Of a stretch of DNA of 64,000 nucleotides, positions 25,119 to 40,135 are shown one piece after another (the stretch's first letter is position 1; each line of letters starts with the position of its first letter). The stretch covers positions 2,170,001-2,234,000 of the forward strand of contig NZ_AP024109.1 in assembly GCF_016591715.1 (NCBI RefSeq). The letters are read 5' to 3'. This DNA comes from Mesorhizobium sp. J8 (GTDB lineage Bacteria; Pseudomonadota; Alphaproteobacteria; Rhizobiales; Rhizobiaceae). The translations under genes and the position numbers were made by a program. The notes below the pieces were generated by a model. That model saw only the letters and a list, made by a program, of their open reading frames with translations. It was not told where the DNA came from and did not search any database.

Positions 25119-25284
25119 GTGGCGCGGTCGGATTTCGCTCGAAACTGCCGCATGCCGGATGGTAGAAAGGGGTGAAGTAGCGTCGGGAAGCAGTCGAAGC
25201 CGACATTGACAAGCCGGCGCCCGAAACCTAAGCACGGGCAACTTGGCGTCGAGGCGGGGGCCGCGGTAGTTCAAGGAGAGCTTG

Positions 25285-26175
25285 TTGAAAGGAATTATCC
25301 TTGCAGGTGGAAGCGGGACGCGCCTTTATCCACTTACATTAGCGGTTTCTAAGCAGATACTGCCGATCTACGACAAGCCGATGATCTATTACCCGCTAAG
25401 CGTGCTGATGCTCGCGGGGATTCGCCAGATCCTGGTCATTTCAACTCCGCGCGACTTGCCGGTTTTCCAGGCGTTGCTGGGCGACGGTTCCGAATTCGGG
25501 CTGGAATTGTCCTATGCCGAGCAGCCGCAACCCAACGGCCTCGCCGAGGCCTTCATTATCGGTCGCGACTTCATCGGCAAGGACAACGTGTCGATGATTC
25601 TCGGGGACAACATCTATTTCGGTGAAGGCCTGTCGCATCTCTGCCGGGCTGCGGCTCGCCGTGACAGCGGCGCCTCGGTGTTCGCCTATCATGTCGACGA
25701 TCCGGAGCGTTACGGCGTAGTTTCGTTCGACAAGGCGACCGGCAAGGCCTTGACGATCGAGGAAAAGCCTCAGAAGCCGAAATCAAACTGGGCCGTCACC
25801 GGCCTCTATTTCTACGACAACAGGGTCGTCGACATCGCCTCGACGATCCGCCCTTCCGCGCGCGGCGAGCTCGAGATCACGGCGGTCAACAACGTCTATC
25901 TCGAGCGCGGGGAACTGCAGGTACATCAGCTCGGCCGCGGCTATGCCTGGCTCGACACCGGTACGCATGACAGCCTGCATGAGGCCTCGTCCTTCGTGCG
26001 CACGATCGAGCATCGCCAGGGCATCAAGGTCGCTTGCCCCGAGGAGATCGCGTTCGAGCAGGGCTGGCTCGGTGCCGACAAGGTTCTGGAGCGCGCCGCG
26101 CGGCTCGGCAAGAACGAATATGCTGCCTATCTGCGTCGGCGGGTGGCCGATCTGATGGAGGAACGCGGTGCTTGA
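25285..26175 (+). CDS. rmlA: Glucose-1-phosphate thymidylyltransferase
   Basis: The product has 296 residues with a TTG start. TTG at 25285 gives [16 protein letters not shown], the usual RmlA N-terminus, and AAGGAG at 25273-25278 is six bases upstream; the TTG at 25282 is too close. Further motifs are [41 protein letters not shown] and the C-terminal [12 protein letters not shown]. It makes dTDP-glucose from glucose-1-phosphate and dTTP, the first step to dTDP-L-rhamnose. It heads rmlA-C-B-D, with overlapping or nearly overlapping junctions that imply one transcript. Confidence 0.95.
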
Positions 26176-26722
26176 GGTCAGGCCGCTCGGCCTCGATGGC
26201 GTGCTGGAGATCGTGCCCAAGCGGCATGGCGATGCACGCGGTTTTTTCAGCGAGACCTGGAACGCCGAACGCTTCGCCGAAGCCGGCATCGACCTCGCTT
26301 TCGTGCAGGACAACCATTCCTATTCCGCCGTGGCCGGCGTGCTGCGCGGGCTGCACTACCAGCTGCCGCCGCGCGCGCAGGACAAGCTGCTGCGCGTCGT
26401 CAGGGGCAGCGTCTTCGATGTAGCGGTCGACATCCGCCGTTCTTCGTCCACTTTCGGCAAATGGGTGGCGCTGGAGGTGTCGGCCGAGATGGGCAACCAG
26501 ATACTGGTGCCGAAAGGCTTCGCGCATGGTTTCGTCACGCTCGTGCCGGATACCGAGGTGCTCTACAAGGTGACCGACACCTACTCGCCCGAGCATGACC
26601 GCTCGATCCGCTTCGACGACCCGGCGATCGGCATCGAATGGCCGTCGCTTCCCGGCGGCTTCCAGCTTTCGGACAAGGATCGCAACGCGCCGCTGCTCGG
26701 CTTGGCGGAGGTGTTCGCGTGA
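26168..26722 (+). CDS. rmlC: dTDP-4-dehydrorhamnose 3,5-epimerase
   Basis: The product has 184 residues with a GTG start inside the end of rmlA (8-bp overlap). It is a cupin with RmlC landmarks: the early [33 protein letters not shown] with the catalytic histidine, [27 protein letters not shown] and [12 protein letters not shown]. It epimerises C3 and C5 of dTDP-4-keto-6-deoxyglucose. The order A-C-B-D differs from the enterobacterial B-D-A-C order. Confidence 0.95.
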
Positions 26723-26736
26723 GAAGGGACGGCGGC

Positions 26737-27870
26737 ATGAATTTCCTGGTCACCGGCGGCGCCGGTTTCATCGGCTCGGCCGTGTGCCGGCATCTGTGCG
26801 CCAATCCGGCCTACCGCGTCACCAATCTCGACAAGCTCACTTATGCCGGAAACCTCGCATCGCTGCGGCCGATCGAGAACGCGCATAACTACCGCTTCGA
26901 GCAGGCCGACATATGCGACGAGCGCGCGGTGCTGGAAATCTTGCGCCGCGACGACATCGACATCGTCATGAACCTCGCCGCCGAGAGCCATGTCGACCGC
27001 TCGATCGACGGGCCCGGCGCCTTCATCGAGACCAACATCGTCGGCACCTACCGCATCCTGAATGCGGCGCTGGAATACTGGCGCGGCCTGTCCGAGGAGC
27101 GCAAAGCCGGCTTCCGCTTCCATCATGTTTCGACCGACGAAGTCTTCGGCGACCTGCCTTTCGACGGCGGCATGTTCGTGGAGGAAACGCCTTATGCGCC
27201 GTCCTCGCCCTATTCGGCCTCGAAGGCGGCCTCCGACCATCTGGTGCGGGCCTGGCATGAGACCTATGGCCTGCCTGTGGTGCTGTCCAATTGCTCGAAC
27301 AATTACGGTCCCTATCATTTCCCGGAAAAGCTGATCCCGCTGGTCATCCTCAACGCGCTCGACGAGAAGCCGCTGCCGGTCTACGGCGCCGGCGCCAATG
27401 TGCGCGACTGGCTGTTCGTCGAGGATCATGCGCGGGCCCTGGAACTGGTGGCCACCAAAGGGCGGCCGGGCGAGAGCTACAATGTCGGCGGCAATTCCGA
27501 ACGCACCAATCTCGGCGTGGTCGAGGCGATCTGCGATCTGCTCGACCTCAGGCGCCCGCGCGCCGGCGGCAAGCGCTATCGCGAGCTGATCGCCTTCGTC
27601 ACGGATCGCCCCGGCCATGATCGCCGCTATGCGATCGACGCCTCCAAGATCGCGCGCGAGCTCGGCTGGACGCCAAAGGAGAATTTCGACAGCGGCCTGG
27701 CGAGGACCGTCGACTGGTATCTCGACAACAAATGGTGGTGGGGGCCGATCCGCGAGCAGCGCTACGCCGGCGAGCGGCTGGGCCACGGTTCAGTCGCGAA
27801 GAGCCAGCATGGCCCGATCGAAAGCAGCCCGGCCGGGGACAAGGCTGAGAGCAGGAAGGTGACCACGTGA
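26737..27870 (+). CDS. rmlB: dTDP-glucose 4,6-dehydratase
   Basis: The product has 377 residues from ATG 26737; AAGGGA eight bases upstream favours it over a GTG at 26719 that overlaps the rmlC stop. Motifs are [42 protein letters not shown] and [15 protein letters not shown], with [18 protein letters not shown] later. It converts dTDP-glucose to dTDP-4-keto-6-deoxyglucose. A Lys/Ser/Gly-rich tail of about 25 residues extends past the usual end. The stop overlaps the GTG of rmlD. Confidence 0.95.
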
Positions 27871-28850
27871 GGCTTGCCGTCACCGGACGCGAGGGTCAGG
27901 TTGCCGCGAGCCTGGTCGAGGCGGCGCGGGGCCGCGACGATGTCGAGGTCGTCGCCGTCGGCCGGCCGGCGCTCGACCTTGCGCGGCCCGGCACGGTGTT
28001 CGCGGCATTGGAAGCGGCAAGGCCCGACATCGTCGTTTCCGCCGCCGCCTACACTGCCGTCGACCAGGCCGAGGAGGAGAAGGACCTGGCCTTCGCGGTG
28101 AACGCAACCGGCGCCGGCAAGGTGGCCGAAGCCGCGGCGAGGCTCGGCGTTCCCGTCATCCACCTGTCGACCGACTATGTCTTCGACGGCACCAGGGACG
28201 GCGCCTATGTCGAGACCGACCCGACCACGCCGCTCGGCGTCTACGGCGCCTCCAAGCTCGCCGGCGAAGCGGCCGTGGCGGCGGCAAACCCGCGCCACCT
28301 CATCCTGCGCACGGCCTGGGTCTACAGCCCCTTCGGCAAGAACTTCGTCAAGACGATGCTGAGGCTGGCCGGGGACCGCGACGAGATCGCGGTCGTCGCC
28401 GACCAATGGGGCAATCCGACATCCGCGCTCGACATCGCCGACGCCATCCTGCATGCGGCGGCGAGGCTGGGAGCCGACAGGAATTTCGCCGCCTTCGGCG
28501 TCTATCACCTGGCGGGCGAGGGCGAGACCAACTGGAGCGGCTTTGCCCGTCACATCCTCGACACAAGCAAGGCGTTTGGTGGCCCGCACGCCAAAGTGCG
28601 CGATATCGCGACGAGCGACTATCCGACCAAGGCCAGGCGCCCGCAGAATTCGCGGCTGTCGAGCGCGAAGTTCGCGGGCGTGTTCGGGTGGCAGGCGCCG
28701 CAGTGGCGGGAGGCGACGGATAGCGTGGTTGCTCGCCTATTGGACAATGAGCGGAATTTCGGTCTTTGCTTGGGACACGGCAGCTTGAACCCGTTGTCGA
28801 GCCCAGCGCCAAGCGGTTCGATGCCGCTCAAGGACAACATTCAGCAATGA
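27867..28850 (+). CDS. rmlD: dTDP-4-dehydrorhamnose reductase, with C-terminal extension
   Basis: The product has 327 residues with a GTG start inside the rmlB stop. RmlD landmarks are [40 protein letters not shown] and [13 protein letters not shown], with the late [14 protein letters not shown]. It makes dTDP-L-rhamnose. The fold should end near [13 protein letters not shown], but the frame continues for about 35 residues (rich in Gly, Ser, Pro) and ends in an ATGA overlap with the next gene. Base composition starts to drop in this tail, so it may mark the join with a transferred segment. Confidence 0.92.
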
Positions 28851-31105
28851 ACAAGCCGACCAGCTTGCCGAAGAATCATAGCTCCGAAGCGGACGCGAAA
28901 TCAACGAATGTCGATAGGCGATCGCTTCACCGGCTCTACGATTCCCATGAGGGCAAGGTTTCGGACAAGTGGTCGATCTATCTGAACGAATACGGGCGAA
29001 TTTTTTCGAAATATCGAAACCGGCCGGTTCGGGTCCTCGAGATCGGTATTCAGAATGGCGGCTCGCTTGAAATATGGGGAAAATACTTTCCGCGAGCAAA
29101 GGTCATTATTGGCTGCGATATCAATCAGAATTGCGGCCAGCTGACTTTTCGAAAGAAGAAGATTAGCGTTGTCGTCGGTGACGCTAACACCGACGAGGTC
29201 GAAAAAAGAATCATCGGGAGATCCGATGCGTTCGACATCATTATAGACGACGGGTCGCACAGGTCTTCCGATATTGTGCGAAGCTTCGCGCGCTATTTTT
29301 CTCACCTTGCGGACGGTGGGACATTCGTTATCGAGGATCTGCATACCAGCTACTGGAAGGACTTCGAAGGTGGCATCTATGACCCGCTGTCCTCGATGTC
29401 GTTCTTCAAGAGATTGCTCGACCTGATCAATCACGAGCATTGGGGCCTGGACCGTAGTCGAACGGAAGCGCTGGCAGCGTTCGCTGATGGCTATGGGGTC
29501 GCATTCGATGAACATTCGCTGGCGTCCATTCACTCCGTCGAGTTCCTGAACTCCCTTTGTGTCGTGACCAAACGCCCTTCCCAGGAGAATATCCTGGGCC
29601 GCCGTCATATAAGCGGCAAGATCGCCGCCGTTGAGCAAAACATGCTTCATCTTGAGGGCACAGCTTTGAGCGCTGTTGGGCAAGCTGAAAACCCGTGGTC
29701 GTTAAAGTCGACGACGATGGAGGAGGAGATTGTACGCAATCGAGAATTGATCGAGCGGCAAGCTGAGGCCATCGAGACCCTCACCCGCGATCTTGCGGGA
29801 TCGCAGGCGCAAGTTCAGGCCGGAGCATATGCGCTGCAGATGGCTAATGCGGACCTTCAGGCGACAGGGAAGCAGCTGAAAAAGGCAAACACAGACCTTC
29901 AAGCAATGGGAACGGAACTGGAAAAAACGAATGCGGCTCTCGTGGCACGCTCCGAAGATATCGCCGCATTGAAGCATGAAATCGAATTGATTCGCGGTTC
30001 CCGCATGTGGCGTTATGGATCGTTCGTGCGAATGCTTACGTCACTTTCAAGCAAGGCCACGCTTTTTTCGGGGCGGACTGTTTCGCTACATGCGCTCCAT
30101 GAAGCGCAGCTGAATTCTCATCGCCTCACCCTGACAGGTAACCGATATCTCGCCAAAATTTGGTCGGCCCTTTCGCAATCAAGGCTGAAGACGGCTGACA
30201 AAAGGTCTCAGGACCGAAGTATAGCCCAGGACAGTAAGGCGACGATGGGCATTTATCTGGATGTCGATTTCTATCGAAATAACTATGCCGACCTCGCTCA
30301 TATGAGCGACGAACATCTCCGTGATCATTTTGTGAAACATGGCGCACAAGAGGGGCGGTTAGGCGCACGCATATCGTTACGCGAACACTTTTTGGCTGAA
30401 GTGAAATCAAATCGCTCCATCCTCGAAATCGGCCCATTCTGCAACCCGCAAGTAACTGGCGAGCATGTTAGGTATTTCGACGTTCTTGACAGCCAGCAAT
30501 TGGTCGCTAGGGCCGAGCAAATCGGGTATCCGATAAAGGCTGTTCCACAAATTCACTACACTTCGGCCGAGGGGGATCTATCAGCGGTTTCCGATACGTT
30601 CGCTGCGGCAATCAGCTGTCATTGTATCGAACACCAGCCCGACTTGATCCGCCATCTTCAGCAGGTGGCGAATGTCCTGGATGACGGTGGAAAATATTAT
30701 GTGATCGTCCCGGATAAGCGATATTGCTTCGATCACTTCATCCCCGAATCCACGATCGCAGATATTTTGGACGCGCACTTTTCGAAGCGCGGAACACACC
30801 GCCTCGCCAGCGTCATCGAACATCGCGCGCTCACTGTACATAATGATTGTGTTCGCCACTGGCAGGGTGACCATGGTATCCCGCTGCAGTCTTCAGAAAT
30901 TGTAAACCGCGTGCGGACTGCGATTGGTGAATACGAGCAAGCGGATGGTGGCTATGTCGACGTCCACGCTTGGCAGTTCACACCGGAGGGCTTTCTGCGC
31001 GACATCCAGGCATTGTACGAACTCGGTTACTCGCCACTGCGCCCGTCAAGAGTGCATGCGACACCGCGGAACCGAAATGAGTTCACAGCTATCTTGTCCC
31101 GCTAG
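28847..31105 (+). CDS. Double methyltransferase-domain protein with central coiled coil
   Basis: The product has 752 residues and starts at an ATG overlapping the rmlD stop. Residues about 60-170 form a class I methyltransferase-like domain (VRVLEIGIQNGGSLEIW, IIDDGSHRSSDIV, VIEDLHTSYW). Residues about 290-385 are a charged coiled coil with three consecutive 14-residue units starting at Leu330, Leu344 and Leu358. Residues 470-506 carry a DFYRNNYADLA...HGAQEGR segment often found in glycosyltransferase proteins. Residues about 524-740 form a second methyltransferase domain (SILEIGPFCNP, VPDKRYCFDHF, HAWQFTPEGF) homologous to the gene at 32466. Coupling to rmlD points to methylation of a rhamnose-containing glycan. 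Acceptor and positions are unknown. Confidence 0.7.
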   Translation: MNKPTSLPKNHSSEADAKSTNVDRRSLHRLYDSHEGKVSDKWSIYLNEYGRIFSKYRNRPVRVLEIGIQNGGSLEIWGKYFPRAKVIIGCDINQNCGQLTFRKKKISVVVGDANTDEVEKRIIGRSDAFDIIIDDGSHRSSDIVRSFARYFSHLADGGTFVIEDLHTSYWKDFEGGIYDPLSSMSFFKRLLDLINHEHWGLDRSRTEALAAFADGYGVAFDEHSLASIHSVEFLNSLCVVTKRPSQENILGRRHISGKIAAVEQNMLHLEGTALSAVGQAENPWSLKSTTMEEEIVRNRELIERQAEAIETLTRDLAGSQAQVQAGAYALQMANADLQATGKQLKKANTDLQAMGTELEKTNAALVARSEDIAALKHEIELIRGSRMWRYGSFVRMLTSLSSKATLFSGRTVSLHALHEAQLNSHRLTLTGNRYLAKIWSALSQSRLKTADKRSQDRSIAQDSKATMGIYLDVDFYRNNYADLAHMSDEHLRDHFVKHGAQEGRLGARISLREHFLAEVKSNRSILEIGPFCNPQVTGEHVRYFDVLDSQQLVARAEQIGYPIKAVPQIHYTSAEGDLSAVSDTFAAAISCHCIEHQPDLIRHLQQVANVLDDGGKYYVIVPDKRYCFDHFIPESTIADILDAHFSKRGTHRLASVIEHRALTVHNDCVRHWQGDHGIPLQSSEIVNRVRTAIGEYEQADGGYVDVHAWQFTPEGFLRDIQALYELGYSPLRPSRVHATPRNRNEFTAILSR

Positions 31106-31263
31106 GCACGGTGCAAAGCGTTCCTAAGCTGTAAGTCGTAGCCTGCTCCAAGAAGCCAGCTCACGGCGAGGAAATCGATTTGTTCTTTCGTCAACTGCGG
31201 TAGTTTTTCGGCTTGCCCGATTTGAACAGTCGCCTCGGTATCTTCAACATTTGTCTTTCCTTT

Positions 31264-32367
31264 TCACAGGATACCGTTTGCAACCTTGAGCCTGCTCAGT
31301 ACGGACAGGTGCAGCGAGTCTCCCCGCCGTTTGAAATCGGTCATGATTTCGTCGAGATGGCCCTCATGGCCGGTTTCCAGAAGGGCCTGTTCGATTTCGT
31401 CTGCGGAAAACTGCCGGCGGTAAAGAAGATCACGCTTCACGATGGGGCAGGCCAGATATTTTCGGTAAAGAAATCCTCCAGTGTGGATCTGGGAGCGCAG
31501 CCCAATTCTTGAGACAAGTTCGTCAACACATGCCGACTTGGGTAAGCGGAGAAAATGCGTGTGTGGGAACCGGATCGCGCCGGGGTATAGTTTGATGAGA
31601 CCGGTGTAATCATCCTTGCTCAACGTCGAGAGAGCAGGCCGCAAAGCGTTTGGCTTGTAGATGATGTCGATGCTGGAAGCAATCGGGATCATGGCGCGGG
31701 AGAGGCCGATTTCTCCGGCTTGGATCGCCCATAAACGAGAATTTACCGGGAGATAACTGGTCCAAAATCGCTGAAACTTTTCACTGCGGAACAGGTCGCC
31801 GCTGACGGCAAAACAAAACGACTGGATGTGATAGGTGAACTCCCAGTTTTCAAATGTGCCTATTATGTCTGCTTCTGACGTTATCATGCGTCTAAAGAGA
31901 TCAGTAAGCCCACCCTTGAAAAAATAGGTACTGTCGTTGAGGTAAAGCAACCGCGACAGGGCGATGTTGCTCTTCGCAAGGTAGGTCGTGGCATCCTTGT
32001 AGCCGCCAATATCAAAGCCGGAATTGTCTCGGATGATGATAGATCGTGTATGCCCGCTAAGATAGGCGAGTTGATCTTCACTCAAGTCATGGTTGATCAC
32101 AGCGACGATATTAATGCCGGCTTCATTCAGCGATTCGAGCGCGTTTTGCACGTACCAGGAAAATCGCTTCGGCTGCCAGAGCAGGAAAATCGCATAGATT
32201 CCGCCAGGATGCGCGCGCGCTCCCTCGTGGACGGACTTTATAGACGGGCGCGATGGAAACGGCCGACAGCAGAGCGCCCGCAAGACCTTGATGTCATGGT
32301 ACAAGAATTTGACGATGCGTTTGGCGACCGAAAACGCCAGAGCGCGTGCATTTGAGTAAAGACCCAT
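31264..32367 (-). CDS. RgpF-type rhamnan synthesis protein
   Basis: The product has 367 residues. The diagnostic stretch is IIIRDNSGFDIGGYKDATTYL followed by LLYLNDSTYFFKGGL, the signature of the rhamnan synthesis protein F family (PF05045), which acts in building rhamnose-rich chains. Later motifs IIGTFENWEFTYHIQSFCFAVSG and RFWTSYLPVNSR fit that family. It is probably a cytoplasmic glycosyltransferase. It lies on the opposite strand to rmlACBD but within the same polysaccharide block, and its base composition is lower in GC than rml. Confidence 0.78.
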   Translation of the reverse strand: MGLYSNARALAFSVAKRIVKFLYHDIKVLRALCCRPFPSRPSIKSVHEGARAHPGGIYAIFLLWQPKRFSWYVQNALESLNEAGINIVAVINHDLSEDQLAYLSGHTRSIIIRDNSGFDIGGYKDATTYLAKSNIALSRLLYLNDSTYFFKGGLTDLFRRMITSEADIIGTFENWEFTYHIQSFCFAVSGDLFRSEKFQRFWTSYLPVNSRLWAIQAGEIGLSRAMIPIASSIDIIYKPNALRPALSTLSKDDYTGLIKLYPGAIRFPHTHFLRLPKSACVDELVSRIGLRSQIHTGGFLYRKYLACPIVKRDLLYRRQFSADEIEQALLETGHEGHLDEIMTDFKRRGDSLHLSVLSRLKVANGIL

Positions 32368-32465
32368 ATGTGCGGAAGTTCCCTAAAATTAAGGCCCGGT
32401 CTCTATCTGAGGTCTGAATGCTAGGCAAATCGCAGCCTAAACCAAACTCTTGCGGTGCTCGGCAA

Positions 32466-33290
32466 TTAAAGCCTCACTTCCCGCAGCTCTGCCTCGGCCT
32501 GCTTGATCAAAGCCATATCGGTGACAGGCAGGCGCGCCGCAGACTTCGACAGAGTGACATAGAATTCGTGCATGCCCAACTCACCGATGGCATGCTTGTG
32601 GAAGCCGGCCTCGCCTGATTTGATGTAGCCGAGGTCTCGCAGCTTCTTCACTAGGAATCGGAAGGATGACGGCGTGAACTGCCAAGCGTGCGCGTCGTGA
32701 TAGTCAGGCGTCGACTGCGCCATCTCGAAAATCTGCCGGGCTTCCTCGGAGCTTTTCACTAGGTCGACGCCATTCAGATCGGGCGTAACCCATATGCCGT
32801 GCCCGTCCTTCTCGCAGAAATAGGAAAAATGATCGTATAGGACACCGGCAGGATGGCGCTGACGCTTCTCCGCGTAAGCTTGCAGCGCCTGTCCGACTGT
32901 AGTCAGTGGGCGCAATACATCGAAACAGAAGCGTTTGTCAGGCACTGCAAGCACGAGCCTGCCGGAGGGCTTCAACAGCGTTTCGCAGTCCTGTAGAAAC
33001 CGCACGATGTCAGTGACATGCTCGATCACATGTGAAGCAAAAACAAAGTCGTATCGCTCTGTCCCTCCGATGATTTCAGCCATGCTGCGACCATCGGAAA
33101 TATAGTCCACTTCCTCAATCTGGAATGCATTGTCGCGGTACTTCTCACGTAATGTCGCGGCGTCGGCATGGTCGATCGTTTCGACATTGTAGCCCTTGGC
33201 TTTCGGCAGAAACGGATTATAGCTCGGGCCGACTTCCAAACCGAAGCCGGTCGGATCAAACATCGAAAGCAGTATTTCGTCTCTGTTCAT
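32466..33290 (-). CDS. Class I SAM-dependent methyltransferase
   Basis: The product has 274 residues from MNRDEILLSMF; an open frame continues upstream but looks non-coding. The SAM motif I is GFGLEVGPSYNPFLP, with the acidic motif II residue in VETIDHAD, then FVFASHVIEHV and PSGRLVLAVPDKRFCFDVL. The closing HAWQFTPSSFRFLVKKLRDLGY matches the second domain of the gene at 28847, so the two are homologues. The likely acceptor is a sugar of the locus polysaccharide. It may be cotranscribed with the RgpF-type gene 98 bp downstream. Confidence 0.78.
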   Translation of the reverse strand: MNRDEILLSMFDPTGFGLEVGPSYNPFLPKAKGYNVETIDHADAATLREKYRDNAFQIEEVDYISDGRSMAEIIGGTERYDFVFASHVIEHVTDIVRFLQDCETLLKPSGRLVLAVPDKRFCFDVLRPLTTVGQALQAYAEKRQRHPAGVLYDHFSYFCEKDGHGIWVTPDLNGVDLVKSSEEARQIFEMAQSTPDYHDAHAWQFTPSSFRFLVKKLRDLGYIKSGEAGFHKHAIGELGMHEFYVTLSKSAARLPVTDMALIKQAEAELREVRL

Positions 33291-33864
33291 GGGCTGCGAG
33301 CATGCCGCAACAGGTACGCGCGCGCAAGTGCAGCGCCGACAAAGGGACTCGCTAGAAGGGCCTGAAGACAATCAACTTTTTTGTCATCGTCCGAAAGGGA
33401 TGCAGCCGAAACCGATGCTGAACGACTTTGGCTGAAACTGGAAGACTGATTGGTAGCGAGGACATCATCGGTCGAGCGGTTCATCTCAGTGGTCATATAT
33501 CGAATGCGTGGCGTCAGCTTCCGAGCATCCGGCCGGTACGCTGTCAGTCTTCAGCTTGATGACCTTGCCGCGCTCGGTCGCTAAAGCTAAGAAGAGAGTG
33601 AGGCCCGAGAAGGCCTACGGCAGTGGCTGCTTGAGATAGGTGTCACTTTCGGCTTCGGAGAATAACTGCGGCAATGCCGCAACCACTCAAAAGCGGGTGA
33701 GTATCGATGCGTTGCGACCGCCGCTTGTAGAGCTTCGCACCCTCCCCTCCTGTTGCTCCGCATGCCAACCGTCGATTGCTGGGTTGCGCAATTCAGCGTG
33801 CTGTGCGAGGTGCCAACTACGCCAAGGCAAGATGCAGCTATTCAGGGTCAACGGTGTTGAATTG
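33291..33864. other. 574-bp divergent intergenic region
   Basis: This gap separates the minus-strand methyltransferase from the plus-strand membrane protein. Open frames of up to 70-75 codons cross it on both strands, but none has family motifs or a ribosome site. A frame continuous with the membrane protein runs back to 33640, but it is Cys/Ser/Arg-rich and unlike protein sequence. It probably holds divergent promoters. No repeat or RNA gene was seen. Confidence 0.5.
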
Positions 33865-35601
33865 ATGTCGACCGACGCTCGTACAGATTCTATCAGCCGT
33901 TCAACTCCCGTCTCCCTAGTTGCTTCCGTTGGGCCGATCACGCTCTTCCTAGTAGCGCTCATCCTGACGGCGCAGGCGAGAGGTGTTCCTGATAATGACT
34001 ATTGGGACATTTTCTCTCCAATGGTCCGAGCGCTCGACGAGTTCCCAGCGATATCCGACCTTTATGCAAGATCGAACGAGCATATCGTCGCCGGTGCAAA
34101 GCTCTTCTATCTCTTGAATTTCCGTCTTTCCAACGGGGACAATTTCGGTCTCTCAGCTATTACCGCTGTCTTCTCGCTTATTATCGCTGTCGCTCTTTCG
34201 TATGCACTCTCGTTCTCCATGAAATCCAAGCTTGAAGCATTTGTTATAGGGATAGCCACATCGCTTTTTGTGTTCAGTCCATTCGCTGCACACAACTTCT
34301 TTCTTGGCATGAGCGGGGTTGCCTGGATCGGTGCAAATCTCTTCACCGTGCTGGCTGCACTGGTTTTTTGGCAATCGGCCGAACACCAGAAGCCGTACGG
34401 TTATCTCATTGCCGTAGCTTTGGCTGCCATTGCTGCGCAATTCTACAGCACAGGCCTTACTGCATTGTGCGCAATCGGGATCCAAGGATTCTGCTCGGAC
34501 AAGACGAGGCGGCTTGGTATCGCGATTTTCGTGCTAGGCGTAGCCTACTTGATTATGATCGCTTTGCTTCAGCATGTCCCCACGCAACATGGTGCTCGCA
34601 ATTTCAATCCGATGCAGATTGCTCTGTTCTGCTTCACGTTCATCGGTGGCGGCATCGTAACTTCCGAGTCCGCCGCTATTCCACTTGGCATCATCGCAAT
34701 TGTGATAGCCTCCCTGATTGCGGGATTTAGAATTCTACGGCCTGACGAGAGCAGCTTTCGATCAGCCTTTTGCGTTGCGATCATAGCATATGCGGTCATG
34801 ACGAGTGGGCTGGCGGCAATTGGTAGATCAAATGTGTGGGGTGATGCGGCAGCCTTAGCGAGCAGGTATGCAACCATTCCTGCGCTTTTCTGGGTGGGAT
34901 TGTTTGGAGCAGTCTTTTGCCTCTTCCGGCAGACCGCTTTTGGTCGCCGGTTCTCGATCGCGATGTTTGCCGCCGCAGCCGCGCTGATAGTGGTGAATGG
35001 CACGCCGCGGCTGGCGGAGGCTCTCGCTAGGGCCGAAGGAAAAGACATTGCAACGTTGGCGTTGTCCCTTGGTGTCAAGGACCCCGACCTCATGCAATAC
35101 GTTACGCCAGTGCCGGATCAGTACTATGCTCTCGAGGACTATCTGAAAAAGTTCAATCATGTCCCCTTCGACGGAAGGGATTTTGGCTGTCCTTCCCTCG
35201 GAATGCAGATAGGAATATCCAGCCAGTCGGACAGCTTAGTAGGTTACATCGATACCGTATCCAAAACGCAAGACTCGCAGTGGGCGCGTGTTTCCGGCTG
35301 GGTGGCGGACAGTTCCGACAACCGGCCACCACTGCTTGGCAGCGATCTCATCTCCACTTATAGCTGCATTGCTCTCTTCGATGACGATGGAACGGTCATA
35401 GGCCTGGGTTTGGGAGGGATGCACCGGCCGGATGTGGCGAAAGCTCTCGGGCGGGCACGTGATGACTATGGCTGGTCTGGCTACGTTGATCTCCAAATCC
35501 TCTCTAGCCAGCAAAATCCTCGATCGATATATGCGGGGGTGGCTACGCCGTCTGGTTGGGCAAAGTTGCCGAAACCAATTGAAATTGGATCGAAGCTTTG
35601 A
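33865..35601 (+). CDS. Polytopic membrane protein, possible GT-C-type glycosyltransferase
   Basis: The product has 578 residues from ATG 33865; ATG 33832 is an alternative. About ten membrane helices span residues 17-400, followed by a soluble domain of about 150 residues. After the first helix a loop has clustered acids (VPDNDYWDIF, residues 41-50) and the sequence SNEHIVAGAKLFYLLNF near residue 70. Acidic residues in the first periplasmic loop and an NEH motif recall GT-C enzymes that use polyprenyl-phosphate sugars. The TGA overlaps the TTG of the following methyltransferase, and a DPM-like GT2 and flippase-like gene follow. The function is inferred from topology and neighbours. Confidence 0.6.
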   Translation: MSTDARTDSISRSTPVSLVASVGPITLFLVALILTAQARGVPDNDYWDIFSPMVRALDEFPAISDLYARSNEHIVAGAKLFYLLNFRLSNGDNFGLSAITAVFSLIIAVALSYALSFSMKSKLEAFVIGIATSLFVFSPFAAHNFFLGMSGVAWIGANLFTVLAALVFWQSAEHQKPYGYLIAVALAAIAAQFYSTGLTALCAIGIQGFCSDKTRRLGIAIFVLGVAYLIMIALLQHVPTQHGARNFNPMQIALFCFTFIGGGIVTSESAAIPLGIIAIVIASLIAGFRILRPDESSFRSAFCVAIIAYAVMTSGLAAIGRSNVWGDAAALASRYATIPALFWVGLFGAVFCLFRQTAFGRRFSIAMFAAAAALIVVNGTPRLAEALARAEGKDIATLALSLGVKDPDLMQYVTPVPDQYYALEDYLKKFNHVPFDGRDFGCPSLGMQIGISSQSDSLVGYIDTVSKTQDSQWARVSGWVADSSDNRPPLLGSDLISTYSCIALFDDDGTVIGLGLGGMHRPDVAKALGRARDDYGWSGYVDLQILSSQQNPRSIYAGVATPSGWAKLPKPIEIGSKL

Positions 35602-36296
35602 AGACTGCCTATGTAAATTCGGTGAGGTTCGCTAGAAAGATAGCAGAGCGCAGCGGGCTGCTTGCGCGCTTGGAGCGTTCAGAAAGTCGCAATGTTCGTT
35701 GGGCGAGAAGTCTATTCGGCATTTACGATAGCGCTGACCTTGTTCAACTGGATATGCCATGGTGGACATTCGCCGCGATTGATGCCGTGGAAGCTTTTCT
35801 GTCATCGCGTAATGGCTTGGCCCAGGTCTATGAGTTCGGAGCCGGAGCCAGTACAGTTTGGCTGGCAAAACGATGCGGCTCGGTCTATTCGGTCGAGCAC
35901 GACGCTCCGTTCGCGCGAGCGATGAGCAGCATGTTTGAAGCCTATTCCAACATTTCAGTGCTTGTCGTGGAGCCAACGGCAGCTTCCCCTTCCTCCAGGG
36001 CGAGGTCCAACCGGAAAGGATATAAGGAAAGTGCTTTTGATCGGTACGTCTCATCAATTGACCGGGTTGATGGTTCATTCGATCTTATTGTGATCGATGG
36101 TCGAGCCAGGATTTCATGCCTTGCAAAATCTATCGACCGCCTTGCACCAGGCGGTGTGATATTGTTCGACAATAGCGACAGACGTGAATATCGCGACGCT
36201 ATCGATACGTGTGGGCTACAGGAGCGGGTGACGAGGGGGCTCGCGCCAGCGTTGCCTTTTCCCAGCCAGACCTCCTTGCTGACCCGGAGGAACTGA
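35598..36296 (+). CDS. Class I SAM-dependent methyltransferase-like protein
   Basis: The product has 232 residues with a TTG start overlapping the upstream stop (TTGA). SAM motif I reads VYEFGAGASTVWLAKRCG, followed by VYSVEHDAPFARAM and the later DLIVIDGRARISCL and GGVILFDNSDRREY. This is the pattern of the O-methyltransferase-like Methyltransf_24/FkbM neighbourhood. The tight overlaps on both sides imply it works with the membrane protein and the GT2. The likely acceptor is a sugar. Confidence 0.7.
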   Translation: MKTAYVNSVRFARKIAERSGLLARLERSESRNVRWARSLFGIYDSADLVQLDMPWWTFAAIDAVEAFLSSRNGLAQVYEFGAGASTVWLAKRCGSVYSVEHDAPFARAMSSMFEAYSNISVLVVEPTAASPSSRARSNRKGYKESAFDRYVSSIDRVDGSFDLIVIDGRARISCLAKSIDRLAPGGVILFDNSDRREYRDAIDTCGLQERVTRGLAPALPFPSQTSLLTRRN

Positions 36297-36297
36297 C

Positions 36298-37287
36298 ATG
36301 CCAAGCGTTTCGATAGTGATACCCGTAAAGGACGAGCAAGATACCGTTCGCGAGTTGGCCGCTCGGATCAAGGCGGCCTTTGAGCGTATCGACGAGACGG
36401 AAGCCTCACTCAAGGAGATTGTTTTCATAGACGATGGAAGCCGGGATAATACGTGGAGTGAAATCGTAAGTGCAACTCACGCTTCCCCCTCCGTAAAGGG
36501 TTTCCGCCTTCGGCGAAATTTCGGCAAAGCTGCCGCCCTACAAATGGGCATATCAAATGCCTTGGGCGACATCATCGTCACCATGGACGGAGACCTTCAA
36601 GACGACCCGAAAGAGATCCTTCGCTTTCTCAAGGAAGTTCGGGCTGGTGCTGATGTCGTCTCCGGGTGGAAACAGGTGCGCCATGACCCGCTTGGCAAGA
36701 CACTGCCGTCCAAGCTCTTCAACAGGGTAACGGCGAAGGTCTCCGGGGTTGACTTGCACGATTTCAACTGTGGCTTCAAAGCGTACCGCCGAGAGGTTTT
36801 CAATGACGTCCGCCTCTATGGTGAACTACATCGGTTCATTCCGGCCCTTGCTCACGCAATGGGGTTCAAGGTCGCCGAGATTGTGGTTCAGCACCATCCT
36901 CGCCGGTTCGGGAAGTCCAAATATGGGTTCGGTCGCCTGCTGAAGGGTTTCTTGGATCTGCTTACGGTCGTGACCATCACGAAGTTCAACTCGCGTCCAG
37001 GCCACCTATTTGGAGGTCTGGGCGTTGCTGTCTTCGCGATAGGGTTTGCGATATTTCTTTTTCTATGCGTGCGATGGTTTGGTGGAGAAGCAATCGGTGG
37101 ACGTCCGTTACTGCTTGTTTCCGCGCTCTTGATGATCGTGGGGGTGCAGTTCACGCTCTTCGGTATGGTCGCTGAGTTGATTGTTGCTACACGTGGCGAT
37201 AGTCGCGACAGGAATATCGTCGCCGAGATTGCAAATTGGGAGAGTCAACCCGTCGCGAAGCCGGCCGGCGCTCATGTCAAGCTCTAA
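36298..37287 (+). CDS. DPM/GtrB-like family 2 glycosyltransferase
   Basis: The product has 329 residues. The GT2 domain has SVSIVIPVKDEQDTV, IVFIDDGSRDNTW, RLRRNFGKAAALQMG and the DxD-like ITVTMDGDLQDDP region (here IIVTMDGDLQDDP). Two membrane helices at about residues 240-265 and 275-300 complete the layout of dolichyl/undecaprenyl-phosphate sugar transferases such as GtrB and ArnC. It probably loads a sugar onto undecaprenyl phosphate at the inner leaflet. It starts one base after the methyltransferase stop and overlaps the flippase-like gene by 14 bp. Confidence 0.85.
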   Translation: MPSVSIVIPVKDEQDTVRELAARIKAAFERIDETEASLKEIVFIDDGSRDNTWSEIVSATHASPSVKGFRLRRNFGKAAALQMGISNALGDIIVTMDGDLQDDPKEILRFLKEVRAGADVVSGWKQVRHDPLGKTLPSKLFNRVTAKVSGVDLHDFNCGFKAYRREVFNDVRLYGELHRFIPALAHAMGFKVAEIVVQHHPRRFGKSKYGFGRLLKGFLDLLTVVTITKFNSRPGHLFGGLGVAVFAIGFAIFLFLCVRWFGGEAIGGRPLLLVSALLMIVGVQFTLFGMVAELIVATRGDSRDRNIVAEIANWESQPVAKPAGAHVKL

Positions 37288-38188
37288 GATTCTTCGCGTT
37301 GGTGGTGGTCTTGTTGCTGTGGTAGCAGCGATTTTTGTAGCGCGCTCGGTCTACGGCTACGCCGATCAATTATCTGAGGTGATATATCGGCCGCAGTTTA
37401 TTGCTGTAGTCGTGGCGGGCACGATTGTTTACGCTTTGTCGCTGCAGCTTGTTGGTCTGGCCTGGTTCAGTCTCTTGGCGTCGGTCGGAGAGAATGCAAT
37501 CGCGCCGGTCCTTGCGCTTCGCATTTTCGCGCGCACTCAAGTTTACAAATATCTGCCAACCAATGTGATTCATCTCGTCGGTCGATTTGTAGTGGCGTCT
37601 CGGTATGACGCTTCGAAGGACGCGCTGTCCTATGCGCAGATGATGGAAATCGTCCTAATGATATTTGCCGCGGGAAGCGTTGCGATGATTTTTTCCTATT
37701 CGTTCGTCCGTAGGGTCGGGGAGGAGTACGGATTTAACCCCGATGTTGCGTCTTCGGTTTATATCATCGCCGGGGCGGCTGTATTTTTACTCGCCTTCGT
37801 CGCGGCTGCTCGATATTTTAGGTCTCGCCAGAGACGCCTCACCATTTCAATGGTTGCACTCAGCCTTGCCTACTATATCCTCTTCTTTCTGGCCAATGGC
37901 TTGATCTTCTCCGCCCTTGTCCAATCGCTTTACGGACAAACGACCGAATGGAAGATGACCATCGGAATATCCGCGGCCGGCTGGTTGCTAGGTTTCGTTG
38001 TGCCGGGGGCGCCTGGCGGTTTAGGCGTCAGAGAAGCAGTTTTCATCGCAGGTCTTTCGACTGCCGGCATACCAACCGCTGCTTCGACCACGGTTGCAAT
38101 AACACATCGGGTTGTCACCCTTTTGGGTGACGTTCTCCTTGCAGTTCTGGAGTTCGGGTATCAAAGATGGATCGCCAAATCTGTCTAG
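37274..38188 (+). CDS. Flippase-like membrane protein (LPG synthase TM-domain family)
   Basis: The product has 304 residues from ATG 37274, inside the end of the GT2 gene. It has about seven or eight membrane helices. The motif FVVPGAPGGLGVREAVFIAGL near residue 235 is diagnostic for the UPF0104 / lysylphosphatidylglycerol synthase transmembrane family. NVIHLVGRFVVASRY is a second family landmark. Members adjacent to DPM-like glycosyltransferases are often proposed to flip lipid-linked sugars. With the two preceding membrane-associated proteins it suggests a periplasmic glycosylation set. Confidence 0.75.
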   Translation: MSSSKILRVGGGLVAVVAAIFVARSVYGYADQLSEVIYRPQFIAVVVAGTIVYALSLQLVGLAWFSLLASVGENAIAPVLALRIFARTQVYKYLPTNVIHLVGRFVVASRYDASKDALSYAQMMEIVLMIFAAGSVAMIFSYSFVRRVGEEYGFNPDVASSVYIIAGAAVFLLAFVAAARYFRSRQRRLTISMVALSLAYYILFFLANGLIFSALVQSLYGQTTEWKMTIGISAAGWLLGFVVPGAPGGLGVREAVFIAGLSTAGIPTAASTTVAITHRVVTLLGDVLLAVLEFGYQRWIAKSV

Positions 38189-38225
38189 TCTGCGAAAGGG
38201 ACAACTGCCGTTACGCGTCCACCTC

Positions 38226-38948
38226 TCAGGCGGCTTCCATTGCCGCCATCGTCATCGACTCCACCCGGCCATGGCGAAGTGTCAAAGTCTTCGTGCAGAC
38301 ACGTTCGATCAGGCTCTGATCGTGACTTGCCAGCACGATAATGCCGGCCTTCTCCGCCAGTTCGTCCATGCGTCGCTTGGCCTTTTCCTGGAAGGAAGCG
38401 TCGCCAGCGCTGATCCACTCGTCCATCAGAAGGATCTCGGGCTCAAGCGCGGTTGATGCAGCGAAAGCCAGTCTTGCAGCCATGCCTTGGCTGTATGCTT
38501 TGAAGGGCAGGTCGATGAAATCGCCGAGCTCGCTGAAGGCGATGATCTCTTCCATCTTCTCTTCGATTTCGGCTTCGGTCCAACCGCTGATCAATCCTCT
38601 CAATACGATGTTCCGGCGGCCTGTGGCTTCGGGGCGAAATCCTATGTTGATATTGAAGAGGGCATCGACTTTGCCATTGATGACGATGCGTCCCCCAGAG
38701 GGTTCATAGATTCCGTAAAGCACCTTCAGCAGGGTCGTCTTGCCGGCTCCATTCGGACCGACCAGACCCAACCTATCACCCGCCTTCAACTCAAAACTGA
38801 TCCCGTCCAGTGCTTGGACGAACTGCTTTCTTCCGGAACTGGCGATTCTGCCACCCGTATCGCTCATGCGTCGGTCTGGCGCAGAAAGGGTTAGCTTTTC
38901 GTGCAGCTTATAAACCAGGCTGACGTTATCCAGCTTAATGGAAACCAT
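38226..38948 (-). CDS. wzt: Polysaccharide ABC exporter, ATP-binding subunit
   Basis: The product has 240 residues. Walker A is GLVGPNGAGKTTLLKVL, the signature is YSQGMAARLAFAAS, and Walker B with switch is EILLMDEWISAGDASF followed by the H-loop VLASHD. MDEWISAGD is typical of the O-antigen/capsule exporter family. The protein stops right after the nucleotide-binding domain, so the C-terminal carbohydrate-binding domain found in O8/O9a-type Wzt is absent. The permease gene is 7 bp upstream on the same strand. Confidence 0.88.
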   Translation of the reverse strand: MVSIKLDNVSLVYKLHEKLTLSAPDRRMSDTGGRIASSGRKQFVQALDGISFELKAGDRLGLVGPNGAGKTTLLKVLYGIYEPSGGRIVINGKVDALFNINIGFRPEATGRRNIVLRGLISGWTEAEIEEKMEEIIAFSELGDFIDLPFKAYSQGMAARLAFAASTALEPEILLMDEWISAGDASFQEKAKRRMDELAEKAGIIVLASHDQSLIERVCTKTLTLRHGRVESMTMAAMEAA

Positions 38949-38955
38949 TGGACAC

Positions 38956-39747
38956 TCAGATCATGAAGACGACCTGCCGGCGATATCTGCCAAGCAGCAT
39001 CAATGCAATAACCCATGCGGCCAGCGTGAAGGCACCGGTTAGAGCGAAATCGTGTCCCGGAAACTCGTCGCTGAGGATGGGATGGCGTACAACCTCCAAG
39101 AAGCTCGTGAATGGATTCCAGTTATATGCATAGGTTTGTATCGGGTCTTGCCCGTTGTTGACCCAGAAGACCGGCGTGAAGAACATGCCAACCCTCATCA
39201 GGTTGCCGACTATGAATTCGCTGTCAGGGAAAAATGCGCCGGTAAACGCGAAGATTGCAATGATAGCTGGAGTAGCCAGCAGAATCAGAAGCAGCCCCCC
39301 AAGCGACCACAGCCATGCCGTCGTGAGGGCCGGTCCACTGATCAGCAGAATGACTATGCATCCGGCAATGGCATAGCCCGCCCGAATCGCTGACTGCACC
39401 GTCAACCGCATCACATAGACGAACAAGGGCAGCGTCGTGCCTTCGATGAAACTCTGCTCACGTTTGAACAGCGACACGCTCACGGTTATGACCTCCATGA
39501 GATAGAACCATACCATGAGGCCAATCGCGACGTAGGCGGAATAGCCCGCCGCATCCTTGCCGGCGGGCTGGAATACGAAGACGAAGGTGCCTACGAAGGC
39601 GAGATAGTTGACCAGAAGCCAGAGTGGTCCGAGCGTGGTTCGCCGGTGCTGGTCACCAATATCTTCGTGAGCGAGGGCAATCCATACCCTTCGCAGCTTC
39701 ATCGCCCCGAAGATGTCGTCGAGGGCGCCGTTCAGTACCGAAATCAT
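38956..39747 (-). CDS. wzm: Polysaccharide ABC exporter, permease subunit
   Basis: The product has 263 residues from MISVLNGALDD; a longer frame starting at 39810 lacks support. It has six membrane helices. The conserved cytoplasmic entry AHEDIGDQHRRTTLGPLWLLVNYLAF and the late WNPFTSFLEVVRHPIL are hallmarks of the ABC-2 polysaccharide export permease family. With the ATPase it should move an undecaprenyl-linked glycan across the inner membrane. It is the last gene of the lower-GC block. Confidence 0.88.
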   Translation of the reverse strand: MISVLNGALDDIFGAMKLRRVWIALAHEDIGDQHRRTTLGPLWLLVNYLAFVGTFVFVFQPAGKDAAGYSAYVAIGLMVWFYLMEVITVSVSLFKREQSFIEGTTLPLFVYVMRLTVQSAIRAGYAIAGCIVILLISGPALTTAWLWSLGGLLLILLATPAIIAIFAFTGAFFPDSEFIVGNLMRVGMFFTPVFWVNNGQDPIQTYAYNWNPFTSFLEVVRHPILSDEFPGHDFALTGAFTLAAWVIALMLLGRYRRQVVFMI

Positions 39748-40135
39748 CGATGTGGTGCCACAATAGCTGTTCTGGTGATTTGTCCCTCGCCCCACACGAC
39801 CGCCGTGCACTCTCTTTCATAGCCATTGCGACAAGCTTATGGCAGCGCGCTGCGGCTTAGTGAAGCCGGATCGTCAAACCGTGACATTTATTAGCTTTCC
39901 CTGTTGAGTGCCCGACAGTTTTCGGAACGACTGACAGTCCGGTCTGAGTTATTGCGCTTGTAATCAAATCATTCGCACAATCGGTATCCCCCAAAAACCG
40001 CTGGCTCTCTCGCCCGCTCCGGGCTAATGCGGTAGCCGGGTGACGGAGCTTGGGGGTTTTGCAATCTAGAGTGGCGGCGGACGAGGTTTTTCGCCATTCT
40101 GGTAGCATCCCACGCCTGGAGTTCAGTACTACCCA
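39748..40135. other. 388-bp divergent intergenic region with nested inverted repeats
   Basis: This lies between the minus-strand exporter and the plus-strand dehydratase and should hold both promoters. Around 40016-40049 the arms GCTCCG/CGGAGC enclose GGCTA/TAGCC, forming an imperfect hairpin, followed shortly by GGGGGTTTT. No gene was seen. The GC-rich base composition of the locus resumes here. Confidence 0.5.

What the first reader, a model, noticed from the sequence alone, without database searches (positions are those of the whole stretch)
28847..31105. Two methyltransferase domains joined by a repeated coiled coil, coupled to rmlD: a WbdD-like capping or ruler candidate
Seen: one 752-residue frame has a methyltransferase-like domain, a coiled coil with three 14-residue leucine-spaced units, a glycosyltransferase-associated segment and a second methyltransferase domain. 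Its ATG overlaps the rmlD stop. Known: in E. coli O8/O9a, WbdD caps the non-reducing end by methylation (and phosphorylation) and its coiled coil sets chain length before Wzm/Wzt export. Inference: this protein may do an analogous job with a different catalytic pairing, on a rhamnose-containing chain exported by the Wzm/Wzt pair at 38.2-39.7 kb.
Basis: partly seen in the sequence, partly recalled or inferred. Interest (0 to 1): 0.72.

Follow-up and report, generated by a model that had tools for sequence, protein, structure and literature searches.

The report
Fused two-methyltransferase sugar-chain capping candidate
A soil bacterium's gene joins two methyl-adding enzymes through a long rod and seems to be a chain-capping protein whose usual sugar-adding half was replaced by a neighbouring enzyme, so it most likely helps finish and size the bacterium's surface sugar chains.

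Summary
One 752-residue frame at 28847-31105 has a methyltransferase (MT), a 108-residue helix, a Trp/Arg motif and a second MT, and its ATG overlaps the rmlD stop.

The N half is a MycE/SpnK-type sugar O-methyltransferase with its metal and catalytic residues kept. Its relatives often carry glycosyltransferases after the coil (82 of 120 proteins listed, 40 of 80 named loci) and often lie by wzm/wzt: the WsaE / Klebsiella O7 "terminator-coil-polymerase" plan.

The protein is a chimera. Its first 414 codons match a sister Mesorhizobium's MT-coil-GT-GT gene (82% DNA). Its C-terminal part matches a stand-alone MT gene that lies just behind such a gene in another Mesorhizobium (84% DNA). The full fusion was found in 1 of 146 genus genomes. 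Similar MT-linker-MT proteins elsewhere have a second MT from another clade.

Likely work: O-methyl capping of a 6-deoxyhexose chain end, the coil as spacer, and a second methylation beside it.

Against the WbdD model: no kinase, a second MT where the polymerase site should be, and a Wzt without the cap-reading domain, which was found nowhere in this genome.

Capping chemistry and ruler are inferred. Verdict: new variant of a known kind.

The parts
28847..31105 (+). 752-aa fused protein: MycE-type methyltransferase, coiled coil, Trp/Arg motif, linker, second methyltransferase
   Evidence: translation; Pfam; AlphaFold2 model
27867..28850 (+). rmlD (dTDP-4-dehydrorhamnose reductase); its TGA overlaps the next ATG (ATGA)
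   Evidence: Pfam RmlD_sub_bind E 1.5e-101; sequence
28904..29611 (+). N-terminal MycE/SpnK-type sugar O-methyltransferase domain (residues 20-255)
29039..29065 (+). SAM motif EIGIQNGGS (residues 65-73)
   Evidence: E65, G67, G71, G72 in 208 of 208 distinct N domains aligned (the 80 named loci among the sources were found with patterns holding this motif or DDGSH)
29246..29260 (+). DDGSH (134-138): D135 and H138 align with MycE Asp275 and His278 (after taking 20 off the PDB chain count, my inference)
   Evidence: alignment; residue roles from PMC9275233 passages; D135 and H138 208 of 208
29333..29338 (+). E163-D164; D164 aligns with MycE Asp304, a metal ligand
   Evidence: 207 of 208, one gap
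29717..29995 (+). coiled-coil region (residues 291-383), start of one predicted helix 291-398
   Evidence: AlphaFold2 secondary structure
29843..29968 (+). three 14-residue units (333-346, 347-360, 361-374); the middle one has no counterpart in sister G106
29996..30070 (+). post-coil Trp/Arg motif and helix (residues 384-408)
   Evidence: family mean net charge +5.1 and moment 0.42 over 22 residues, n=111; here +3 and 0.22 for residues 387-408
30090..30168 (+). fusion junction: DNA match to the MT-coil-GT gene ends at 30089, DNA match to the stand-alone MT gene starts at 30169
   Evidence: blastn
30242..30379 (+). FYRNNYADL...HF..HGAQEGR helical module (residues 466-511)
   Evidence: also in stand-alone relatives P0239, P0240; models
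30380..31102 (+). C-terminal class I methyltransferase domain (residues 512-752)
   Evidence: Pfam PF13489; 90% identical to P0239; model
25282..26175 (+). rmlA
   Evidence: named from its sequence (recalled); same block in relatives
26168..26722 (+). rmlC
   Evidence: named from its sequence (recalled); same block in relatives
26737..27870 (+). rmlB
   Evidence: named from its sequence (recalled); same block in relatives
31264..32367 (-). RgpF-like protein, matches only the first 153 of 503 positions of the rhamnan synthesis F family; candidate glycosyltransferase
32466..33371 (-). stand-alone methyltransferase, about 30% identical to the C domain; groups with the C-terminal MTs of P0021, P0022, P0024, P0027-P0029 on a long branch
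33640..35601 (+). membrane protein without a Pfam match (two relatives align from residue 75, one from residue 4)
35598..36296 (+). small methyltransferase (Methyltransf_24)
36298..37287 (+). family 2 glycosyltransferase, best NCBIfam match to an undecaprenyl-phosphate sugar transferase, below cut-off
37181..38188 (+). flippase-like membrane protein (TIGR00374, below cut-off)
38226..38948 (-). Wzt, 240 aa, no C-terminal carbohydrate-binding domain
38956..39810 (-). Wzm

Best explanation
It is a chimera made from an O-antigen chain terminator. The N-terminal domain, a metal-dependent MycE/SpnK-type methyltransferase, most likely O-methylates the non-reducing terminal 6-deoxyhexose (rhamnose, or a related sugar) of an undecaprenol-linked chain and so ends its growth. 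The coiled coil holds this site at a fixed distance from the membrane-side assembly complex and may bias chain length. In its closest relative the part after the coil carries two glycosyltransferases, presumably polymerising. Here a deletion or recombination replaced them with a methyltransferase that relatives encode as the next gene; it now sits at the far end of the rod and probably adds a second O-methyl to the same chain (a doubly methylated cap, or methylation of a freshly added residue). Shown here: domain identities, catalytic residues, the two-source origin, the cluster and its conservation, and the missing cap-reader domain. Inferred: substrate, capping, spacing, the second methylation, and which enzyme polymerises the chain.
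For: Family plan: GT2-GT2 follows this MT in 58 of the 120 listed proteins and in 18 of 80 named loci; any recognised glycosyltransferase in 82 of 120 and 40 of 80. WsaE, an MT plus two rhamnosyltransferases, is credited with the 2-O-methyl cap of a polyrhamnan (PMC2943079, passages).
Export link: wzm in the fetched DNA of 45 of 80 named loci; in the genus, wzm at >=55% identity in 22 of 23 genomes with the MT-coil gene against 22 of 123 without. P0068 fuses MT and coil-like linker to the Wzt cap-reading domain (PF14524 E 3.6e-36).
Chimera: DNA match to G106 ends at 30089, to G082's stand-alone MT starts at 30169. G082 carries both genes, the MT frame opening 400 bp after the GT frame ends.
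Both halves look selected: dN/dS 0.18 (N) and 0.105 (C), no stops.
MT-linker-MT also in P0022, P0024, P0031, P0022/P0024 with a second MT of another clade.
Against: The Wzt here (240 aa) has no cap-binding domain and the genome has no Wzt_C match at all; PMC11231755 says all terminated examples have one. The loop that holds MycE Tyr208 is missing. No match in the genome spans both glycosyltransferase domains of G106's protein; partial ones are 25-40% identical, so the polymerase is unidentified. [quoted passage not shown] Coil-length steps are only weakly heptad-like in independent pairs (p 0.025-0.11). In 11 of 80 named loci (one cut by a contig end) the MT frame is at most 329 residues, too short for a long coil; three of these (L099, L114, L132) still adjoin a cap-reading Wzt, so capping need not involve a ruler. 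The basic helix after the coil is weaker here than in the family. The full fusion was seen in one genome only. In 35 of 80 named loci no wzm is in the fetched DNA (some contigs are short).
Confidence: 0.55

Rival explanations
1. Tailoring, not termination: both methyltransferases O-methylate internal residues of the chain, and the coil is only a scaffold that holds them in the assembly complex. Chain length is set by coupling of synthesis to export, as in Klebsiella O2a, whose transporter also lacks the carbohydrate-binding module.
For: Wzt here has no cap-reading domain. In PMC11231755 (passages) the O1/O2 transporter lacks the module and length follows transporter:synthesis stoichiometry. 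The window's Wzt and Wzm score best against the galactan exporter models, below their cut-offs. WsaE methylates regardless of length in vitro. Two further methyltransferases are in the cluster. In M. loti NZP2213 the O-methyl share rises when O-acetylation is lost (0.40 to 1.10 while 6-deoxytalose falls from 15 to 7.5), and the wild-type O-chain is described there as 2-O-acetyl-6-deoxytalose exclusively (PMC6274867, passages).
Against: In the named survey a Wzt with the cap reader lies within 200 bp of the MT gene in 26 of 28 cases, a short Wzt in 2 of 14 (two more short ones lie at 221 and 284 bp), and one protein fuses MT and reader (P0068). The wild-type M. loti table gives about one 2-O-methyl-6-deoxytalose per core N-acetylquinovosamine (0.40 to 0.45), as a cap would (not shown to be terminal there, and that strain's locus was not examined).
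Confidence: 0.25
2. Deletion scar: loss of the glycosyltransferase half fused two reading frames by accident. The C-terminal methyltransferase still works, the N half is a vestige, and the strain's O-antigen is altered or lost.
For: The junction sits near the start of the downstream gene in relatives; the fusion is in 1 of 146 genus genomes; no match in the genome spans the lost glycosyltransferase pair; the RgpF-like neighbour matches only part of its family.
Against: 752 codons stay open; pairwise dN/dS is 0.18 and 0.105 in the two halves, although this cannot isolate the time since fusion; the coil differs from the sister's by an in-register 14 residues; MT-linker-MT proteins exist elsewhere; other genus members carry MT-coil frames of 399-462 aa without room for glycosyltransferases (G045, G049, G021, G104, G015).
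Confidence: 0.15
3. A true WbdD-type terminator: cap added, recognised by Wzt, export of capped chains only.
Against: No kinase, no WbdD-type tail, no cap reader in Wzt or genome; the N domain is MycE-type.
Confidence: 0.05

Closest known systems
WsaE of Geobacillus stearothermophilus (S-layer polyrhamnan, PMC2943079 and PMC3898925, passages)
   Same: N-terminal sugar O-methyltransferase on a large protein, rml and wzm/wzt genes alongside, rhamnose chain; the sister protein in G106 also has two C-terminal glycosyltransferases
   Different: here the glycosyltransferases are gone and a second methyltransferase takes their place; whether WsaE's own methyltransferase is MycE-type was not tested (its sequence was not at hand)
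Klebsiella pneumoniae O7 ORF6 (PMC11231755, passages)
   Same: methyltransferase at the N end, coiled coil, C-terminal modules, rml genes and Wzm/Wzt
   Different: ORF6 has a kinase and an immunoglobulin-like fold taken as a carbohydrate-binding module before the coil and two GT2 modules after it; its cap is methyl-phosphate
WbdD of E. coli O8/O9a (PMC3482155, passages)
   Same: methyltransferase and long coil, ABC-transporter O-antigen
   Different: no kinase (O9a); a second methyltransferase where WbdD has its polymerase-recruiting tail; Wzt without a carbohydrate-binding domain
MycE, SpnK and ThnM1 (sugar O-methyltransferases of natural-product pathways; ThnM1 from PMC9275233, abstract and passages)
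   Same: fold, metal and catalytic residues of the N domain
   Different: short loop without the MycE Tyr208; no MycE auxiliary N domain (recalled); joined to a coil in a polysaccharide cluster
Aquifex aeolicus O-antigen with 3-O-methyl rhamnose/mannose cap (PMC9445017, abstract and passages)
   Same: a methylated rhamnose cap on an ABC-exported chain
   Different: there the Wzt carbohydrate-binding domain reads the cap; no such domain was found in this genome

Membership tests
MycE/SpnK-type metal-dependent sugar O-methyltransferase (N domain) | sequence and fold of the catalytic domain | tested here: met
MycE/SpnK-type metal-dependent sugar O-methyltransferase (N domain) | metal and catalytic residues Asp275, His278, Asp304 of MycE | tested here: met
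   D135, H138, D164 aligned (numbering shifted by 20, inferred); conserved
MycE/SpnK-type metal-dependent sugar O-methyltransferase (N domain) | Tyr208 in the loop after motif I | tested here: not met
   seven-residue gap in the alignment
MycE/SpnK-type metal-dependent sugar O-methyltransferase (N domain) | methylation of a sugar hydroxyl | not testable with these tools
   needs an assay
WsaE-type terminator-polymerase | N-terminal methyltransferase followed by two glycosyltransferase domains in one protein | tested here: not met
   no glycosyltransferase family in the window protein at E<=1; met in sister G106
WsaE-type terminator-polymerase | rml and wzm/wzt genes in the same cluster | tested here: met
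WsaE-type terminator-polymerase | O-methylated rhamnose at the chain end | not testable with these tools
   needs structural analysis of the polysaccharide
WbdD | WbdD-type methyltransferase domain | tested here: inconclusive
   N domain is MycE-type; WbdD entries not among the 60 of 113 rows shown
WbdD | kinase domain (O9a type) | tested here: not met
   no kinase family at E<=1; no further folded domain in the model. O8 WbdD is described as a simple methyltransferase (PMC3482155)
WbdD | long coil after the catalytic part | tested here: met
   helix 291-398; oligomer state not tested
WbdD | C-terminal amphipathic helix and polymerase recruitment site | tested here: inconclusive
   a basic amphipathic stretch follows the coil in the family (n=111) but is weak here; recruitment not testable
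WbdD | Wzt with a cap-reading carbohydrate-binding domain | tested here: not met
   Wzt is 240 aa with an ABC_tran domain and no Wzt_C; no PF14524 match in the genome, while 2 of 14 control genomes ring
Klebsiella O7 ORF6-type terminator | kinase and carbohydrate-binding module between methyltransferase and coil | tested here: not met

The most novel reading that the evidence does not exclude
A 'double-writer' terminator without a reader. Evolution has more than once put a second methyltransferase at the far end of a terminator's coil (with or without keeping the polymerase), so that one rod carries two methylating sites, one at each end. In this genus such terminators work with a transporter that cannot read the cap. 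Capping would then serve length control and surface chemistry, not export licensing, mixing the two known export strategies.
Probability: 0.3. Interest if true: 0.65.

Novelty: new variant of a known kind. Interest (0 to 1): 0.5.

Why it matters
Terminator proteins decide how long some ABC-exported O-antigens grow. This locus offers a natural experiment: relatives in one genus hold the same kind of methyltransferase and coil with glycosyltransferases, alone, or with a second methyltransferase, the two closest coils differ by exactly 14 residues, and the transporters beside them are too short to hold the cap reader. That makes the question 'does a cap need a reader?' directly testable in a plant-associated genus. 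The MT-linker-Wzt_C fusion (P0068) independently ties this methyltransferase family to cap recognition.

Tried and rejected
Tandem DNA repeat behind the 14-residue units: not found.

Heptad-step test of coil lengths: all-against-all pairs look strong (239 of 695 unequal pairs differ by a multiple of 7) but are not independent. With each protein used once, whole-heptad steps give p 0.083, 0.11 and 0.025 at three identity cut-offs; a control linker gives 0.48, 0.45 and 0.69. Only suggestive.

WbdD by sequence or fold: WbdD entries are not in the 60 of 113 rows shown, nor in the 50-row lists. This is not proof of absence.

Paper searches for a Mesorhizobium or two-methyltransferase terminator (search listings only) gave none. 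The library lacks most subscription journals.

Rows treated specially: in the genus table I called a genome positive at about 50% identity or more over the N half (23 of 146), a cut-off chosen after seeing the list and counted by hand. G029 was counted positive although its gene is in two frames. Weaker matches (37-42%: G003 twice, G075, G111, G046, G129; and lower ones) were counted negative. For wzm the cut-off was 55%, in a gap between 55% and 30%. Shared ancestry was not corrected for. In one search the 200 bp limit was mine; at 300 bp the short Wzt count becomes 4 of 14. In one search at most 2 candidates per genome were scored.

Mended on checking: I had taken the rmlD overlap to be kept in G106; one search shows that it is not.
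Full report
WHAT IS THERE. The frame at 28847-31105 is open for 752 codons and its ATG shares an ATGA overlap with rmlD. From N to C it has a methyltransferase (about 20-255), a helix of 108 residues (291-398), a Trp/Arg motif, a poorly predicted linker, a small helical module and a second methyltransferase (512-752), by Pfam and AlphaFold2 (C part alone mean pLDDT 96.3). The genome is one contig of 6.69 Mb.

FAMILY PLAN. A protein search gave 618 relatives, 120 listed. By profile HMMs built here from a few seeds, so that other domains go unrecognised, the 120 are: MT then two GT2 domains 58, MT with nothing recognised 32, MT-WbsX 9, MT-GT2 (one GT2 profile) 7, MT-GT-GT-MT 4, MT-MT with a C-type second domain 3 (P0022, P0024, P0031), tandem MycE-type MT 3, and 4 others with glycosyltransferases. 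This is the plan of WsaE, whose N-terminal methyltransferase is credited with the 2-O-methyl cap of a polyrhamnan (PMC2943079, passages), and of Klebsiella O7 ORF6 (PMC11231755, passages). Against a universal ruler: 11 of 80 frames are at most 329 residues (L135 cut by its contig end), too short for a long coil, and L099, L114 and L132 among them still adjoin a cap-reading Wzt.

IN THE GENUS. Of 146 genomes, 23 (the window's included) have the N half at about 50% identity or more. In all 22 relatives it lies behind rmlD on the same strand within about 1.2 kb. In 18 of 22 close Wzm is on the same contig within 20 kb; in three it is on another contig; in one (G015) there is no close Wzm. Close Wzm (>=55% identity) occurs in 22 of 23 positives and 22 of 123 negatives (Fisher p 6e-13; hand counts, cut-offs set after viewing, relatedness not corrected). 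What follows the coil varies: GT2-GT2, WbsX-GT2, GT2-GT4, or frames of 399-462 aa with no room for a glycosyltransferase (G045, G049, G021, G104, G015).

THE FUSION. Window 28600-30089 aligns in one piece, gaps included, to sister genome G106 (82% DNA), whose gene is MT-coil-GT2-GT2. Window 30169-31104 aligns to a stand-alone MT gene of G082 (84% DNA), which lies behind that genome's own MT-coil-GT2-GT2 gene, 400 bp between the end of one frame and the start of the next open frame. The junction therefore lies at 30090-30168, close to where the stand-alone gene starts in relatives. Only the window genome has both halves in one frame (1 of 146 in the genus; 1 of 394 in a family draw that repeats some genus members and scored at most two candidates per genome). 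No match in the rest of the genome spans both glycosyltransferase domains of G106's protein; partial matches are 25-40% identical.

IS IT ALIVE? The frame is open. Pairwise dN/dS against the nearest sources is 0.18 for the N domain, 0.38 for the coil and 0.105 for the C part; neighbours give 0.23 (rmlD), 0.07 (wzt), 0.02 (wzm). These values cover time before the fusion too. MT-linker-MT proteins in other lineages (P0022, P0024) carry a second MT from a different clade, so this arrangement arose more than once. Their linkers were not modelled. P0031 sits on a long branch and its place is unsure.

THE COIL. It is one 14-residue unit longer than in G106, an exact two-heptad step. Across the family the stretch from the end of the N-domain match to the Trp motif runs from 56 to 316 residues (n=138 of 230 with the motif found). 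Steps of whole heptads are enriched only weakly when each protein is used once. A basic amphipathic stretch follows the coil in the family (mean charge +5.1, moment 0.42, against -1.2 and 0.22 for the coil end; n=111), where WbdD is described to have a membrane-associated amphipathic helix (PMC11231755), but the window protein's is weaker (+3, 0.22). A ruler is thus plausible and not shown.

THE MISSING READER. In the named survey 28 of 47 Wzt frames carry the C-terminal carbohydrate-binding domain by an HMM built here. Taking the nearest Wzt at each of 45 loci, 26 of 28 with that domain lie within 200 bp of the MT gene, against 2 of 14 short ones (p 6.6e-7; at 300 bp it would be 4 of 14; three long Wzt without a hit were left out). 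P0068 joins MT, linker and Wzt_C. In the genus loci read, 18 wzt frames are 205-249 aa from match start to stop (205 in one match that begins at residue 42 because the fetched DNA was cut), too short for the domain, and the window's genome has no Wzt_C match anywhere while 2 of 14 control genomes ring. PMC11231755 states that all terminated examples have the module and that the O1/O2 transporter without it couples export to extension (passages). PMC9445017 shows a 3-O-methyl rhamnose/mannose cap and how the domain reads it (abstract and passages). Here a terminator-type protein stands beside a reader-less exporter. M. loti NZP2213 LPS has 0.40 2-O-methyl-6-deoxytalose to 15 6-deoxytalose and 0.45 of the core N-acetylquinovosamine (PMC6274867, table), about one per chain, which would suit a cap; but the same paper calls the wild-type O-chain exclusively 2-O-acetylated and finds more O-methyl in an acetylation mutant, and that strain's locus was not examined.

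VERDICT. Substrate, regiochemistry, ruler action and the polymerase of this strain remain open.

Noticed in passing
P0068 (protein), residues 342-477: A MycE-type methyltransferase and short coil-like linker fused to a Wzt C-terminal carbohydrate-binding domain: cap writer and cap reader in one chain.
   Followed up: partly
genus loci read; window 38226-38948: All 18 Wzt frames read are too short for the cap-reading domain although terminator-type proteins are present; the window genome has no Wzt_C match at all.
   Followed up: partly
window 33640-38188: Membrane protein, small methyltransferase, GT2 of the polyprenyl-phosphate kind and flippase-like protein in a row, shared with G045 and G021 and in part with G049 (contig end); looks like a three-component system for adding side-branch sugars outside the membrane (by analogy, recalled).
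   Followed up: no
window 31264-33371: RgpF-like protein matching only the first third of its family, next to a second member of the C-type methyltransferase family; a similar pair seems to occur in G015 and G020.
   Followed up: partly
P0004, P0017; L137: Tandem duplication of the MycE-type domain in one protein.
   Followed up: no
window 28001-40000: GC falls from about 0.65 to 0.52-0.59 between rmlD and wzm and returns to 0.65 after it, as expected of an exchanged O-antigen cassette.
   Followed up: no
window 28741-28850: RmlD has a C-terminal tail of about 36 residues beyond its family match (1-291); rmlD frames of 323-327 aa also in G106, G001, G051 and G138, while matches in many other genus members end at residue 292-301.
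   Followed up: partly
G075:C1:1240026-1241204 and G029:C1:3833611-3834653: Broken copies of the MT-coil gene in two genus members (an inner stop; a frame change); intact copies exist in others.
   Followed up: no
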